Positions 14,696 through 20,160 of a stretch of DNA of 64,000 nt are shown piece by piece (position 1 is the stretch's first letter; every line of letters starts with the position of its first letter). This DNA is from Lutibacter sp. B1 (GTDB lineage: Bacteria > Bacteroidota > Bacteroidia > Flavobacteriales > Flavobacteriaceae): assembly GCF_012524075.1 (NCBI RefSeq), contig NZ_JAAZUI010000015.1:1-64000 (forward strand). Direction: 5' to 3'. The notes beneath the pieces are model-generated. The model did no database searches, had not been told where the DNA came from, and was given only the letters and a program-made list of their open reading frames with translations. A program made the position numbers and the translations under genes.

Positions 14696-16741
14696 TTAAA
14701 AATTAATATTCAATTGATCGATTGCTTTGGAAGTACTTTTTTCAGGCAATTGGCAAGCTCCATCAACACATATATAAATAAGTGTTTCATTTTTGTTAAA
14801 ACGACCTTCCATTAATGGGAGATTACTTTTATCTAAACTTCCTGCAATCAATTTATTAGGAATATACGTTTGATTTATTTGATGAAGTTTGTTTAAAGCA
14901 TCTTTTCCAGAAATGGCTATTTCATAATAATCACCCACAAAATTGCACAACAATTGTAACCAGTTTGAGAATCCGGAACCGTATTGTAAAGTTCGGTCTT
15001 TAATATTATGCAGCATTTGTTTACTTACTTTTAAATAATAACTGTTAGAAAAATAATGACTTAATTTAAATAAGTTATTTGCCATTATGGAGTTTGAAGC
15101 AGGTATAACGTTGTCTTCAATTTCCATTTTTCGTGTTATTAAATCAGTATCTTCATTTGAGGTGAAGTAAAACATAGATTTTTCGATATCAAAAAAATGA
15201 TCAAACGTATAGTCGGTTAATTGTTTCGCTGTGTTTAACCAATTTTCGTTTAAAGTGGCTTCGTATAGCGATATATAAGCATCAATTACAGTAGCATAGT
15301 CTTCTAAGTAACCATTAATAGTACTCTTACCATTTTTATAAGAATGATTTAAATTTTCGTTTTCGTAAAGTTGAGTTTTAGAAATAAACTTGGCATTTTT
15401 TAGTGCAATATCTAAAAAATGAGGTTCGTTAAATACCTTATACGCATCAATATATCCTTTTAGCATTAAGGCATTCCACGATGTTAACGATTTATCGTCT
15501 AATCTCGGTCTTTGTTTTTTTGTTCGTTCTTTTAAAAGTGTTTTTTGCCAAAAAGTTACTTTTTCTTCTAATTTTGAAACTGGAATTGAGTGTTTTTTTG
15601 AAAACTCATCATCTTCAATTTTTCTGATAAGAACATAATTGTTATGTTCCCAATAACCATAACTATTTATATTGTAATAATCTGAAAACAACTCAAAATC
15701 ATTACTTAAAATTGATTTTAACTCTTCTTGTTTCCAAACATAAAAAGCGCCTTCTTCTAATTTTTCTTCAAAATTATAACTGTCGGCATCTAATGAAGAG
15801 TAAAAAGCACCTTCGTTATTCAATAATTCACGCTCTATAAAATCTAAAGTTTGATAAACTATATTTTTGTAAAGAGGTTTTTTTGTTGCTTGATAGGCTT
15901 CAGCATATAAACTTACTAATTGCCCGTTGTCATACAACATTTTTTCAAAGTGTGGCACGTGCCATTTTTTATCAACAGAATATCGAGAAAAACCACCACC
16001 AATTTGATCGTAAATACCACCGTAAGCCATTTTGGTTAAAGATGTATTTACATAGTTTAGTATTTCGTTATCATTTGCTTGAATAGCATACCTTAACAGA
16101 AATTGATAATTATTAGGCATTGGAAATTTTGGAGCTCTATTTTTTCCTCCTAATTCAAAATCCATATATTTTTTCCATTCTTCAATAGAAGATTTTAAAT
16201 CAGAAAAAGTAAATTCGGTTTGGTTACTATTAAAAGGAACCAAATCGGAGTTTTTAATTCCTTGTGTTAGCTTTTCGGCATAATCGAGCACATCGTTATG
16301 CTTTTCAATATAAAGTTTTTGTAGTTGTTGAAGCGCATTGATCCAGTTTGCTTTTGGAAAATAAGTACCACCCCAAATAGGCCTTCCATCGGGTAAAGCA
16401 ATACAGTTTAATGGCCATCCACCACTACCGGTCATTAATTGAACTGCATTCATATAAATTTGATCTACATCGGGCCTTTCTTCTCTGTCAACTTTAATAT
16501 TGATAAAATGTTGATTCATAACCGCAGCCACTTCTTCATCTTCAAAACTTTCGTGCTCCATTACATGACACCAATGGCATGATGAATATCCTATTGAGAT
16601 TATAATAAGCCTATTTTCTTTTTTAGCTAGTTCAAGGGTTTCTTCATTCCAAGCTTTCCAATCAACCGGATTATGGGCATGTTGTAATAAGTATGGACTC
16701 GTTTCATTTATTAAACTGTTGGTGTATTTGTGTTCAGACAT
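14696..16741 (-). CDS. DUF255 thioredoxin / six-hairpin glycosidase-like protein (YyaL/SSP411 family)
   Basis: A 681-residue cytoplasmic protein. The N-terminal thioredoxin-like domain carries HAHNPVDW and a C55-HW-C58 pair in [13 protein letters not shown], followed by DREERPD and GGWPLNC. The remaining ~500 residues form an (alpha/alpha)6 barrel-like region related to N-acylglucosamine 2-epimerases ([25 protein letters not shown] split between motifs). The biochemical role of the family is unsettled. Length is standard and the gene looks intact. It stands just outside the right-hand edge of the restriction-modification cassette. Confidence 0.9.
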
Positions 16742-16754
16742 TTTATTTCCGTTT

Positions 16755-16800
16755 TGATTTTTACAACGGTTTGGCTATGCATAGTGTGAGAATAAATGTA
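16755..16800. repeat. Repeat-like border sequence downstream of the restriction-modification cassette
   Basis: ACAACGGTTTGG (16763-16774) followed at once by the palindrome CTATGCATAG (16775-16784). From memory, closely similar sequences (acaacggtttggctatg...) recur between laterally acquired genes in Flavobacteriia, but I cannot search for that here. It lies in the 84-base gap between the D12 methyltransferase and the DUF255 gene, so it may mark an insertion border. Confidence 0.35.
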
Positions 16801-16825
16801 CTAGCTATTCAATGCATCACTAATT

Positions 16826-17746
16826 TTATTTACTCGTATAAATTTCTGACTTTTTGCAATAACCCGCATTAGGTATAGATTTTGTTTTCGGCAGTATTTC
16901 TTTTACCTCATCAAATAGTGTTCTTTCAAATTTAGCCTCGTTTTCAAATAATTCATAGTTACTTATAAATAATTCTTTTCCGTTTTGATTGCTATTTTTA
17001 TTTACATTTCTCATTCCATATGTCAAATTCCATTCATTTATATTTGCAAACGAAAAGAGATCTTTAATATATTTACTATCATCATATGTTATTAACCATT
17101 TGTGATTAGTATTTTTTAAAACATGAGCAAATCTTTCGTGGTCAAATGTTTTGTGCATATTTCCATTTTTTCCATATAACGCTGATTTTGTTGCAGAGTG
17201 ATATGGTGGGTCAAGAAAAATAAATACATTCTCTCCTTCTTTCTCAATTACTTTTTGATAATCATAATTTGTAATACTTGTGTCATCTAAAATGGATGAG
17301 AGAAGTTTTACTCTATCTATACTTGAAATCGTAAACCTCTTTTCGAATGCGGCTTTTGAAAAACCACCACTTTCTGTTGTTCCAGAAAAAGTAATTCTAT
17401 TAAACACAAAAAATGCAGATGCCTTTTTCAATTCATCAAATGTATCAATATTATCTAATAAATATCTATGTAGTTCTTTTCCGTTTTTAAAATCATTTCT
17501 CCAATTATAAACTTGTTCAATTAATTCATCAAGGTTTTCTTGCGTTTGTTTCCAAAAATGATACAAGTTAGAATATAAGTCATTTATCCAATAAGTTCTA
17601 TTTGGATATTTTTGTTTTAGATAAACAAAAACAGAGCCACCACCAACAAAGGGTTCTCGAAATTCTTTAAATTCAGGAATAATGGGTGAAATAATTTTTA
17701 AAGCTCTACTTTTCCCACCAGGATATCTTAAAGGACTTTTTATCAT
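16826..17746 (-). CDS. D12-class N6-adenine DNA methyltransferase
   Basis: A 306-residue alpha-class (Dam-like) enzyme. PLRYPGGKSRA at residues 5-15 and PFVGGGS at 32-38 bind S-adenosylmethionine, and FLDPPYHS at 178-184 is the catalytic D-P-P-Y motif of adenine-N6 methylation. Motif order (SAM-binding then catalytic) defines the D12 class. It is the last of three cassette genes; the preceding stop and this ATG read TAAATG, so translation is probably coupled. It should protect one strand of the site recognised by the nuclease upstream. Confidence 0.92.
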   Translation of the reverse strand: MIKSPLRYPGGKSRALKIISPIIPEFKEFREPFVGGGSVFVYLKQKYPNRTYWINDLYSNLYHFWKQTQENLDELIEQVYNWRNDFKNGKELHRYLLDNIDTFDELKKASAFFVFNRITFSGTTESGGFSKAAFEKRFTISSIDRVKLLSSILDDTSITNYDYQKVIEKEGENVFIFLDPPYHSATKSALYGKNGNMHKTFDHERFAHVLKNTNHKWLITYDDSKYIKDLFSFANINEWNLTYGMRNVNKNSNQNGKELFISNYELFENEAKFERTLFDEVKEILPKTKSIPNAGYCKKSEIYTSK

Positions 17747-18847
17747 TTACTCAGCTTTTTCAATGTTAATAAGTAGATTATTTTTTTTTGCTTCTAGAAA
17801 CAGATTTTCAATTATTGATTTTTGTTTTTTTGAAAATGCTTGTTTTGAAATGAAACTACTTATTTTATCAGTATTTTCAGATGATAAAATACTACCTTGT
17901 AGTTTGTTTGAAGTAAGCTTGATGACAGGTATTGGATTATATTCAACATAATCAATTTTTACTTTTTTTAGGTTCGTGTATAATATCATTTTTAACAACC
18001 CGTCTTTAATATCTCCAATACTTGGCAATAGTGAATTTATAGAATGTTTACATTCGATAAGGAAAATGTTTCTACCTTCAATTTTTATTTCGTCAGTTGT
18101 GAAATAATATTTTCCGCCAAGATAATTCTCTATTGTAATTGTGGCTTTTGTATGCGTTGATAAGACTTCTTTCGGTTGAATTGTTTGCATTTCTCGATTT
18201 TGTGCATCTTTTGCTTTCTGTCGTGATGCTGACATAAAATCCTTAACGCCATTAATAAATTGATTAGCAAATCTATCAATTCCTTGTTCATTGTGAAATT
18301 CTACGTTCAAGCGAATACCAATTTGTTTATATGACGATTTTACTTTTTGAATTAATTTTGGAAAAGAATATTCAATTTCTTTTAAGTTCCAATGTAATGC
18401 TGAGCTGTGATAACTTTTAATTTCTGTTATTTTTGATATAACCAAATCATTGTCAAATAGTTGACTTGTTATCTTATTTTCTTTTGTTGTGTGTTTTTCT
18501 GCACTTTCATAGTATGCAAAAATTACAAAAACATCAAGTAAACTCATTAACGAGACGGTATCCCATTGTATAAAATCTCTGTCGCCACGTTTCCCTTCGT
18601 CTTTTATGATAGGAATTACAGTAATCTTTTTTGAATTACCAAGAGTGTTGTAGATTCTTTCATATGGGTATGAACGTGTTCTTTTAGGCGAAACCCATTT
18701 AGATATTCCAAAAGAAAAACTGCCGTCTTTTACGATAGAACTTGCTGGGAGATTATTTATATTAAAATCTTTTATATCAAACACTTTTAATTCACTTATC
18801 AGTTTACTTTGGTATTCAATACCAGTTATTTTAGCACTTATATTCAT
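17747..18847 (-). CDS. Probable type II restriction endonuclease (PD-(D/E)XK-like)
   Basis: A 366-residue protein flanked on both sides by DNA methyltransferases. I do not recognise its family by name. Around residues 247-268 the pattern T-D-E-I-(x)n-I-F-L-I-E-C-K-H, with D252, E265 and K267, fits a PD-(D/E)XK nuclease core, the fold of most type II restriction enzymes. N-terminal parts include a DGSFSFGISKWVSP segment and a charged GKRGDRDFIQWD segment that may contact DNA. No helicase or methylase motif is present, so it is not type I or III. Assignment rests on context plus this motif. It follows the beta-class methyltransferase by 50 bases. Confidence 0.72.
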   Translation of the reverse strand: MNISAKITGIEYQSKLISELKVFDIKDFNINNLPASSIVKDGSFSFGISKWVSPKRTRSYPYERIYNTLGNSKKITVIPIIKDEGKRGDRDFIQWDTVSLMSLLDVFVIFAYYESAEKHTTKENKITSQLFDNDLVISKITEIKSYHSSALHWNLKEIEYSFPKLIQKVKSSYKQIGIRLNVEFHNEQGIDRFANQFINGVKDFMSASRQKAKDAQNREMQTIQPKEVLSTHTKATITIENYLGGKYYFTTDEIKIEGRNIFLIECKHSINSLLPSIGDIKDGLLKMILYTNLKKVKIDYVEYNPIPVIKLTSNKLQGSILSSENTDKISSFISKQAFSKKQKSIIENLFLEAKKNNLLINIEKAE

Positions 18848-18897
18848 CTTTATATATTTCCTTAAAAATATTATATTTTTAAAAATATTCTTTTTAA

Positions 18898-19773
18898 TTA
18901 ATTATTACCATTTTTCTTTTTCTCAATATAATCTAAAGTAACAAACCTATATTTTCCCTTATCTCGTTCAATGACTTTAAAAATATTAGGATTAACTTCA
19001 TTTTTAAATTCAGTTTTTTTTCGTATTACACTTTCTAAATCTTTAATAATTTCAAAACCAACAGAGTTTCTCTCTAATTTTTTTGCAACTTTCATAGTTG
19101 TTCCACTACCAAGGAATGGATCAAGTACTGTTTCGCCATAGTATGAAAACAATTTTATAAGTCTATATACAAGTTCATCAGGAAAAGCAGCAACTCCTTT
19201 TTCAAGCTTTGAACCAGGCAAAACATTTGTAATTTCCCAAATGGTTTTATACCAACCATTGCTTTGAAATTCTTTTGTATCAATTTTAGATTTTTGTCTA
19301 ATTTCCTTTGAAATGGAATGATAATTAAATTTTCCTTTTTGAAAGATAATAACACTCTCTAATAAATTGTCAGGATAAAAATACATTGGATATGGGTTTT
19401 TTAATAAAACCCCACTTCTCCTACTTATTCTTAAATAACCATCTGGTTTTTTCCAAACTATTTTATCTCTATATCTAAAACCTACATTTTGAAATATTTT
19501 AATTGCATCTGCTGTTATTGGGTATTTTTTCCCATCTACGAGCATGTCATCAATATTTAACGCAAAAATTCTACCTTCTTGTAAAACTCTGTATGCTTCT
19601 TTTGCCATTTTCCTTATCACACCAAGATATTGTTCGTAATTTTCAAAAAGCCCTTTATAGTCAAATGGTGCGTTAAAATAAGGTGGTGAAGTAACTATAA
19701 AATGAATGCTTTGGTCTGACAATTCTGCCATACTCATGCAATTACCAAATATCACTTTATGTTTTGTATCCAT
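18898..19773 (-). CDS. Beta-class DNA methyltransferase (TSPPY; N4-cytosine or N6-adenine)
   Basis: A 291-residue enzyme with TSPPYFN at residues 28-34 (catalytic) and DPFLGSGTT at 218-226 (SAM binding). The catalytic motif precedes the SAM motif, which defines the beta class. T-S-P-P-Y is most often found in N4-cytosine enzymes but also occurs in N6-adenine ones. It is the first gene of the cassette on the minus strand. Together with a D12 methylase and one nuclease, it suggests an asymmetric recognition site with each strand protected by a different enzyme. Confidence 0.92.
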   Translation of the reverse strand: MDTKHKVIFGNCMSMAELSDQSIHFIVTSPPYFNAPFDYKGLFENYEQYLGVIRKMAKEAYRVLQEGRIFALNIDDMLVDGKKYPITADAIKIFQNVGFRYRDKIVWKKPDGYLRISRRSGVLLKNPYPMYFYPDNLLESVIIFQKGKFNYHSISKEIRQKSKIDTKEFQSNGWYKTIWEITNVLPGSKLEKGVAAFPDELVYRLIKLFSYYGETVLDPFLGSGTTMKVAKKLERNSVGFEIIKDLESVIRKKTEFKNEVNPNIFKVIERDKGKYRFVTLDYIEKKKNGNN

Positions 19774-19905
19774 ATTGCGAAATTACCTTTATTTTTCTAA
19801 AGCTTGAAGTTTCTTTTGTCCTTTTTCTATATTGACGAGAACTAATTAATAAAAGTAATAGAAAGATATATAACACACGGTGCATTAATTTATATTTTAA
19901 TATTT

Positions 19906-19936
19906 TAAAAAAGAAAAGCGCTTGAAATAAAGCGCC
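19906..19936 (-). terminator. Terminator of the dodecin gene
   Basis: On the minus strand GCGCTT and AAGCGC (19930-19935 and 19918-19923) pair around a six-base loop and run into TTTTCTTTTTT, about 25 bases after the dodecin stop. Confidence 0.7.
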
Positions 19937-19959
19937 TTTTTTGTAGATTTAAATTGAGG

Positions 19960-20160
19960 TTATTTAACTTCAAAAGTAATTTTTACATTTACTCTAAACT
20001 CTTCAACTTCTCCATCGGTAACAACTACACTTTGTGATTGCACAAATGCTGATTTGATATACTTAACACTTTTTGCTGCGTGTGCAACAGCTTTTTTTGT
20101 AGCATCTTCCCAACTTTTTTCGGAGTTAGCCATTACTTCAATAACTTTCATTACAGCCAT
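19960..20160 (-). CDS. Dodecin family flavin-binding protein
   Basis: A 66-residue protein with the full dodecin fold: MKVIEVMANSEKSWEDATKKA, one helix, then a strand-rich half ending FRVNVKITFEVK. Dodecins form hollow dodecamers that bind riboflavin/FMN or CoA and are thought to store or quench free flavins. The usual flavin-stacking tryptophan is present (W17). Length equals the family norm. Single-gene unit with its own terminator. Confidence 0.93.
   Translation of the reverse strand: MAVMKVIEVMANSEKSWEDATKKAVAHAAKSVKYIKSAFVQSQSVVVTDGEVEEFRVNVKITFEVK

What the first reader, a model, noticed from the sequence alone, without database searches (positions are those of the whole stretch)
16826..19773. 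Compact restriction-modification cassette with two different methyltransferase classes and an unrecognised nuclease
The sequence shows, in one direction, a beta-class TSPPY methyltransferase, a 366-residue protein with a D-x12-E-C-K pattern, and a D12 adenine methyltransferase joined by TAAATG. From established knowledge, one nuclease with two methylases of different class points to an asymmetric site whose two strands need separate protection. I do not recognise the nuclease family; it may be a new specificity. Inference: intact and possibly active.
Basis: partly seen in the sequence, partly recalled or inferred. Interest (0 to 1): 0.6.

Follow-up and report, generated by a model that had tools for sequence, protein, structure and literature searches.

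The report
GGCC restriction system, two different methylases
A bacterial DNA-cutting defence cassette that very probably recognises the symmetric sequence GGCC and carries two unrelated methylases that probably both protect that same sequence, rather than one methylase per strand of an asymmetric site.

Summary
In detail: three intact minus-strand genes, beta-class methylase (MB), 366-aa nuclease (RE) and D12 methylase, RE and D12 joined by TAAATG. RE matches a PADLOC Type II restriction enzyme profile (PDLC03572, E 8.9e-76) and has a predicted C-terminal PD-(D/E)XK domain. Among 14 control genomes that profile rings only in Sulfolobus acidocaldarius, whose reported system is SuaI (GGCC, m4C). 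The D12 protein is 51% identical to M.CbeI, a D12-fold methylase shown to make N4-methylcytosine in GGCC, and only 28% to the adenine methylase DpnM. MB is 53% identical to a Sulfolobus-virus methylase annotated as N4-cytosine. Of 65 related loci with flanks, 39 have RE with D12 and no adjacent MB, 20 have both, 4 a divergent beta methylase without D12. Two methylases are thus not obligatory, which argues against an asymmetric site. Best reading: a SuaI-family GGCC system protected by two convergent m4C methylases, inserted between two conserved genes and found in 1 of 37 same-genus genomes searched. New variant of a known kind, modest interest. Specificity and chemistry are inferred, not measured; GGCC avoidance in the host was inconclusive.

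The parts
18898..19773 (-). MB: beta-class N4/N6 DNA methyltransferase (291 aa), predicted N4-cytosine, probably GGCC
   Evidence: Pfam PF01555 9e-45; PADLOC PDLC03353 1.4e-73; 53% identical to the STSV1 methylase, annotated N4-cytosine
19678..19692 (-). catalytic motif TSPPY of MB (residues 28-32)
   Evidence: sequence; position counted by hand from the translation
19372..19422 (-). RRSGVLLKNPYPMYFYP block in the presumed target-recognition region of MB (residues 118-134)
   Evidence: in outline shared by STSV1 and by the divergent beta methylases next to RE in L073, L074, L077, L078 and L079, not seen in three other beta methylases aligned
17747..18847 (-). RE: Type II restriction endonuclease (366 aa), SuaI-family by inference, predicted GGCC
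   Evidence: PADLOC PDLC03572 8.9e-76; the same model rings only in S. acidocaldarius of 14 control genomes
17750..18175 (-). predicted PD-(D/E)XK catalytic domain of RE (residues 225-366)
   Evidence: AlphaFold2 model, mean pLDDT 87.2; VIA-align matches over 225-366, best Z 6.3
18047..18094 (-). catalytic D252-x12-E265-C-K267 of RE
   Evidence: D252, E265, K267 invariant in 61 aligned sequences
16826..17746 (-). D12-fold alpha-class DNA methyltransferase (306 aa), M.CbeI-like, predicted m4C in GGCC
   Evidence: 7m6b (M.CbeI) E 1.6e-85; 137 of 271 residues identical
17300..17410 (-). NRITFSGT-SGG region of D12 (residues 113-149), aligned to the Dam recognition hairpin (that role is recalled)
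   Evidence: 20 of 37 identical to M.CbeI, 8 of 35 to DpnM
16742..19959 (.). stretch between DUF255 (14696-16741) and the dodecin-like gene (19960-20160) that holds the cassette
   Evidence: the two flanking genes lie within 300 bp of each other in 13 of 29 same-genus loci examined

Best explanation
A horizontally acquired Type II restriction-modification system of the SuaI kind. RE is a PD-(D/E)XK enzyme that cuts unmodified GGCC. Two methylases of independent origin, the D12-fold M.CbeI-like enzyme and the beta-class MB, both put N4-methylcytosine into GGCC and protect the host. Shown: the gene set, the catalytic motifs, the homologies, the presence of one or the other methylase alone in relatives, intact frames and purifying selection. 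Inferred: the site GGCC, the m4C chemistry, activity, and why this clade keeps both methylases (most simply, redundant or complementary protection of the same site).
For: RE: PADLOC PDLC03572, which rings in 1 of 14 controls, S. acidocaldarius, an organism whose SuaI/M.SuaI modifies GG-m4C-C and appears to be its only R-M system (PMC5809426 passages), with a beta-class methylase (PMC3425538 passage). D12: 137/271 identical to M.CbeI; 81 of 97 columns conserved in RE-linked D12 are identical in M.CbeI, 50 of them not in DpnM; M.CbeI gives m4C in GGCC (PMC3425538 section 7). Other D12 relatives at 50% stand directly behind HaeIII-family (PF09556) nuclease genes on cyanobacterial plasmids (two read; named so in 3 of 12 rows). 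MB: 53% to the STSV1 gene annotated N4-cytosine methylase, and shares the RRSGV block with the beta methylases next to RE in five loci without D12. Partners: of 65 loci with at least 900 bp on both sides, 39 D12 without MB, 20 both, 4 divergent beta without D12, 1 MB without D12, 1 with RE split. A crude motif scan saw another methylase-like ORF in 1 of 46 loci without a beta hit.
Against: No cleavage or methylation was measured. The S. acidocaldarius ring names a genome, not a gene; I could not read SuaI or M.SuaI. 51% identity does not fix specificity, and the recognition-hairpin region is no better kept (20/37) than the whole protein. Every family name for D12 (Pfam, TIGR00571) says adenine, and MB's NCBIfam matches are adenine methylases; its solved relatives include both adenine (RsrI, 2.9e-10) and cytosine-N4 enzymes (8s9m, 1.7e-8). 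The STSV1 label is an annotation. GGCC avoidance does not separate this genome clearly: observed/expected 0.61 here against 0.66-0.84 in six same-genus genomes. One methylase can also serve a quasi-palindromic asymmetric site (PMC4081073 passage).
Confidence: 0.72

Rival explanations
1. One reading: an asymmetric site, each methylase protecting one strand (Type IIS/IIT-like).
For: Two methylases of different class next to one nuclease; Type IIS and IIT systems usually have two methylases (PMC4081073 passages). VIA-align lists BsmI (an asymmetric cutter, recalled) over 233-243 residues, but only at Z 4.0-4.2 and 5.0-5.7 A.
Against: RE with D12 and no adjacent MB in 39 of 65 loci, including L015, L017 and L024 inside the MB-bearing clade with 2-5 kb upstream; the D12 relative M.CbeI acts on a palindrome; the RE profile matches the SuaI host.
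Confidence: 0.11
2. DpnA-like division of labour: D12 protects double-stranded GGCC, MB (same site) acts on single-stranded or newly replicated DNA, for instance during uptake of foreign DNA.
For: DpnII has a dsDNA methylase (DpnM) plus an ssDNA methylase (DpnA) for one palindrome (PMC3573125 abstract); a DpnA entry is among the PDB matches of MB; MB is the best conserved of the three genes (mean pairwise identity 0.79 against 0.73 for D12 and 0.67 for RE over 18 rows), so it is kept for something.
Against: The DpnA match is weak (E 1.7e-5) beside 2zie (4.2e-27); D12 and RE are not DpnM/DpnII relatives; MB (L071) or divergent kin (L073, L074, L077, L078, L079) stands with RE without D12 in six loci, which would need dsDNA protection; no competence link was tested.
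Confidence: 0.2
3. RE cuts a longer or degenerate site containing GGCC, and the methylases are broader than the nuclease.
For: Methylases wider than their nuclease are known or would work (PMC4081073 passages on BbvI, MlyI and AlwI).
Against: Profile match to the SuaI host; nothing seen in the sequence points to a longer site.
Confidence: 0.12
4. MB is an unrelated passenger methylase with its own site.
For: MB has a partly separate history: window MB is 94% to L002 and 85% to L001, while RE and D12 are nearer L001; 39 of 65 loci have RE and D12 without it.
Against: MB stands upstream of RE in 21 of 65 loci (20 with D12, 1 without); 23 of the 24 MB-bearing rows of the RE tree lie in one clade (96/97); its divergent kin, with the same block, stand next to RE without D12 in five loci.
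Confidence: 0.1

Closest known systems
SuaI / M.SuaI of Sulfolobus acidocaldarius (GGCC, m4C)
   Same: RE profile matches this genome only among 14 controls; beta-class m4C methylase partner (PMC3425538 passage)
   Different: a second, D12-fold methylase is present; bacterial host; I could not align the actual SuaI sequences
CbeI / M.CbeI of Caldicellulosiruptor bescii (GGCC, m4C, alpha class)
   Same: D12 is 51% identical to M.CbeI with DPPY at the same positions 179-182
   Different: RE is not of the HaeIII family found beside M.CbeI-like enzymes on cyanobacterial plasmids (R.CbeI itself was not seen); purified M.CbeI alone protects from CbeI (PMC3425538 section 7)
DpnII system (DpnM + DpnA + DpnII, GATC)
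   Same: two methylases with one nuclease, palindromic site (PMC3573125 abstract); D12 and beta class respectively (recalled)
   Different: D12 is 70/246 identical to DpnM with a different hairpin region; no Pfam match of RE to a DpnII family
Synechocystis M.Ssp6803II and Anabaena DmtB (m4C in GGCC)
   Same: m4C at the inner cytosine of GGCC; DmtB is 57% to M.CbeI (PMC3425538 passage; PMC6560206 passages)
   Different: M.Ssp6803II is discussed for gene regulation, replication and repair; here the methylase is linked to a nuclease
STSV1/STSV2 virus methylase annotated N4-cytosine
   Same: 53% identical to MB, RRSGV block in common
   Different: no nuclease annotated within 2.5 kb; site unknown to me

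Membership tests
SuaI-family Type II restriction enzyme | nuclease profile shared with the SuaI-producing organism | tested here: met
   PDLC03572: window E 8.9e-76; rings in S. acidocaldarius and none of 13 other controls
SuaI-family Type II restriction enzyme | the matching S. acidocaldarius gene is suaI itself | not testable with these tools
   the control search names genomes and gives no loci
SuaI-family Type II restriction enzyme | PD-(D/E)XK active site (catalytic type of the window protein; that of SuaI not seen) | tested here: met
   D252, E265, K267 invariant in 61 sequences; fold matches over 225-366 at moderate Z 5-6
SuaI-family Type II restriction enzyme | cleaves GGCC | not testable with these tools
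   needs enzyme; GGCC avoidance inconclusive
M.CbeI/DmtB alpha-class m4C methylase | D12 fold, motif order F-G-G then DPPY, high identity to M.CbeI | tested here: met
   137/271 identical; 81 of 97 conserved columns shared
M.CbeI/DmtB alpha-class m4C methylase | m4C in GGCC | not testable with these tools
   methylome needed
Dam/DpnM adenine methylase | Dam-type recognition hairpin | tested here: not met
   region 8/35 identical to DpnM against 20/37 to M.CbeI; TIGR00571 105 bits, under its 114.85 cut-off
HaeIII-family (PF09556) nuclease | match to the HaeIII profile | tested here: not met
   no PF09556 match at E up to 1; hhalign against two cyanobacterial members, probability 0.1%. A relation of folds is not excluded
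Type IIS/IIT two-methylase system for an asymmetric site | two methylases needed, one per strand | tested here: not met
   39 of 65 well-flanked relatives have D12 and no adjacent MB; quasi-palindromic exceptions remain possible
DpnII system | DpnM-like D12 and DpnII-family nuclease | tested here: not met

The most novel reading that the evidence does not exclude
Two DNA methylases of unrelated lineages (D12-fold alpha class with DPPY, and beta class with TSPPY) have converged on the same product, m4C in GGCC, and are kept together in one operon as a pair with divided roles (for example dsDNA maintenance against ssDNA or de novo methylation), a DpnA-like arrangement for cytosine and GGCC.
Probability: 0.3. 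Interest if true: 0.5.

Novelty: new variant of a known kind. Interest (0 to 1): 0.35.

Why it matters
It turns an anonymous cassette into a testable GGCC system, suggests that the label 'D12 adenine methylase' is misleading for this branch, and gives a natural set (D12 without MB, beta without D12, both) in which to see how one nuclease changes its protective methylase. It also warns against reading 'two methylase classes' as 'asymmetric site'.

Tried and rejected
Sequence search of RE against PDB gave only chance hits, as single sequence (best E 0.99) and as profile (one match, E 0.34). Pfam, NCBIfam and PHROGs do not name RE. Foldseek's best match had E 0.31; VIA-align gave the nuclease fold at Z 5-6 only; FANCM/XPF and small GTPase rows over about residues 21-148 (Z 3.8-5.1) were not taken as meaningful. 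RE was not found in plasmids or phages; one viral contig carries a 45% relative (L194); MB in viral contigs gave only three 54-residue matches.

GGCC avoidance: the genome-wide pattern GGCCN8GGCC gave 0 against 18 for its reversed control. I reject this as evidence: from the GGCC densities about 0.2-0.6 is expected, and the control CCGG is over-represented here. Single GGCC is 0.61 of expectation over 285 kb, lowest of seven genomes sampled but close to 0.66 in one without RE: inconclusive. An earlier smaller sample gave 0.50.

GC content of the cassette is like its surroundings; direct repeats found were short or weak; promoter and terminator scans were uninformative. Paper searches listed no account of this three-gene variant, but several lists were capped (20 of 58, 20 of 1,391, 12 of 46), and the library lacks most subscription papers and REBASE.

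Rival one went from 0.10 to 0.11 for the same reason. A first re-filing lacked fields and was not accepted.

Full report
What is there. Three genes lie on the minus strand in the order MB (19773-18898), RE (18847-17747), D12 (17746-16826); RE and D12 are joined by TAAATG. MB has the beta-class order (TSPPY near the N-terminus, DPFLGSGTT near the C-terminus); D12 has the alpha-class order (FVGGGSVF, then DPPY at 179-182), read from the sequence (class rules recalled). All frames are open, and dN/dS against L001-L003 is 0.06-0.17.

The nuclease. RE has no Pfam, NCBIfam, PHROG or PDB sequence match of note but matches PADLOC-DB PDLC03572, Type II restriction enzyme, at 8.9e-76. Of 102 relatives found in genome contigs the best 80 were kept (45-89% identity); by record titles, nearly all metagenome bins, they come from several phyla. 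D252, E265, K267 and also E227 are invariant in 61 aligned sequences. The AlphaFold2 model (mean pLDDT 87.2) places D252, E265 and K267 in a C-terminal domain that VIA-align matches to 1y88 Z 6.3 (3.0 A, 97 residues), EndoMS 5gke Z 5.9 (2.9 A, 90), XisH 2okf Z 5.7 (3.1 A, 98) and PaqCI 8em1 Z 5.1 (3.0 A, 96). That these are PD-(D/E)XK folds is partly recalled, and the Z values are moderate; the motif and the profile carry the claim.

Link to SuaI. When PDLC03572 was searched in 14 named control genomes it rang in one, Sulfolobus acidocaldarius. That organism makes SuaI, with GGCC modified as m4C, and the methylome paper says that SuaI/M.SuaI appears to be its only restriction-modification system (PMC5809426, passages). 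M.SuaI is described as beta class (PMC3425538, passage). So RE is most likely a SuaI homologue. I could not see which gene rang.

The D12 methylase. Its best solved relative is 7m6b, E 1.6e-85, against 6e-13 for DpnM. 7m6b is M.CbeI, an alpha-class N4-cytosine enzyme with DPPY at Asp179-Tyr182 (PMC8616854, passages); it was shown to protect DNA from CbeI and to give m4C in GGCC (PMC3425538, section 7). Identity is 137/271 overall and 20/37 in residues 113-149, against 70/246 and 8/35 for DpnM; that this region is the recognition hairpin follows from recalled Dam structures. Of 97 columns at least 95% conserved in RE-linked D12 proteins, 81 are identical in M.CbeI. Two cyanobacterial plasmid relatives that I read (50%) stand directly behind a gene for a HaeIII-family nuclease, overlapping it by 8 bases; these nucleases show no profile similarity to RE. 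Thus one methylase lineage is paired with two unlike nucleases, as expected if both cut GGCC; unrelated GGCC nucleases are already known (HaeIII, NgoPII, BsuRI; PMC4081073, passage).

The beta methylase. MB is 53% identical to the STSV1 virus gene annotated as N4-cytosine methylase (an annotation, not an experiment that I saw). It shares a block, RRSGV-L-x-P-x-P-x-Y-x-YP in outline, with STSV1 and with the beta methylases of L073, L074, L077, L078 and L079, although those are only 30-31% identical to it overall; three other beta methylases in the loci (one in L011, two in L063; 32-40% overall) lack it. The block lies between the catalytic motifs, where recognition is expected (inference). Against m4C: the NCBIfam names that MB matches are adenine methylases, and its solved relatives are of both kinds.

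Partner exchange. Of the 80 loci, 49 have RE+D12, 21 MB+RE+D12, 4 a divergent beta methylase+RE, 3 MB+RE and 3 RE alone. Of the last six, four run off a contig end (L005, L029, L038, L062), L079 has RE in two pieces with a beta methylase upstream, and L071 has MB and 2.6 kb downstream without D12 (its RE matches residues 1-319). With at least 900 bp on both sides of RE the counts are 39, 20, 4, 1 and 1 of 65; 37 of the 39 have no beta hit anywhere in the locus. Loci with broken genes were counted too (for example L009, L014, L020 among MB+RE+D12; L034, L066, L072, L075 among RE+D12). A crude motif scan found another possible N-methylase in 1 of 46 loci without a beta hit (L037). In a 76-row RE tree, 23 of the 24 MB-bearing rows lie in one clade of 28 rows (22 with both methylases, 1 with MB cut by its contig end, 5 with D12 only; support 96/97); L026 and L028 of the five begin at a contig edge, but L015, L017 and L024 have 2-5 kb upstream and no MB. 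L071 lies outside that clade. So either methylase can be the only one found, the simplest reason being that both protect the same symmetric site.

Why both? MB is the best conserved gene of the set (mean pairwise identity 0.79, D12 0.73, RE 0.67 over 18 rows; MB above RE in 150 and above D12 in 148 of 153 pairs), so it does not look like a decaying leftover. Redundant protection, a DpnA-like role, or methylation of different contexts are open. The Type II review says that symmetric-site enzymes have in rare cases two methylases of identical specificity (PMC4081073, passage).

Context. RE occurs in none of the 36 other same-genus genomes searched, and in 1 of 60 genomes in all, its own. The flanking DUF255 and dodecin-like genes lie within 300 bp of each other in 13 of 29 same-genus loci; no part of the cassette was found in any of the 29, and the other 16 had no dodecin hit in the stretch held. 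The cassette therefore looks like an insertion; that it is recent is inference.

Limits. No activity was measured; GGCC avoidance is inconclusive; the SuaI link rests on a profile ring; loci with one methylase do not strictly exclude a quasi-palindromic site.

Noticed in passing
G000 contig C125, 3430-5230 (loci L127, L128): The same genome holds two tandem D12 methylase genes (447 and 321 aa), the first with an N-terminal stretch that looks like a helix-turn-helix domain (label from sight, not searched); such a pair would fit an asymmetric site better than the window's cassette.
   Followed up: partly
L074:3857-5017, L077:3868-5013: The beta methylase next to RE in loci without D12 carries an N-terminal stretch resembling the helix-hairpin-helix part of RadC (label recalled, not searched).
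   Followed up: no
L031:4005-6098: Two RE homologues in tandem (46% and 55% to the window RE) before one D12 gene.
   Followed up: no
L062:4534-6060: RE and the start of D12 read in one open frame, a possible nuclease-methylase fusion, cut by the contig end.
   Followed up: no
window 18898-19773 against 16826-18847: Mosaic history: MB is nearest L002 (94%), RE and D12 are nearest L001 (89%, 88%).
   Followed up: partly
L194:3001-3906: A viral contig (IMG/VR) encodes a 45% RE relative.
   Followed up: no
G000 stretches: CTAG is low (0.40 of expectation) and CCGG high (1.53) in this genome; of six same-genus genomes sampled only G007 has CCGG as high (1.50).
   Followed up: no
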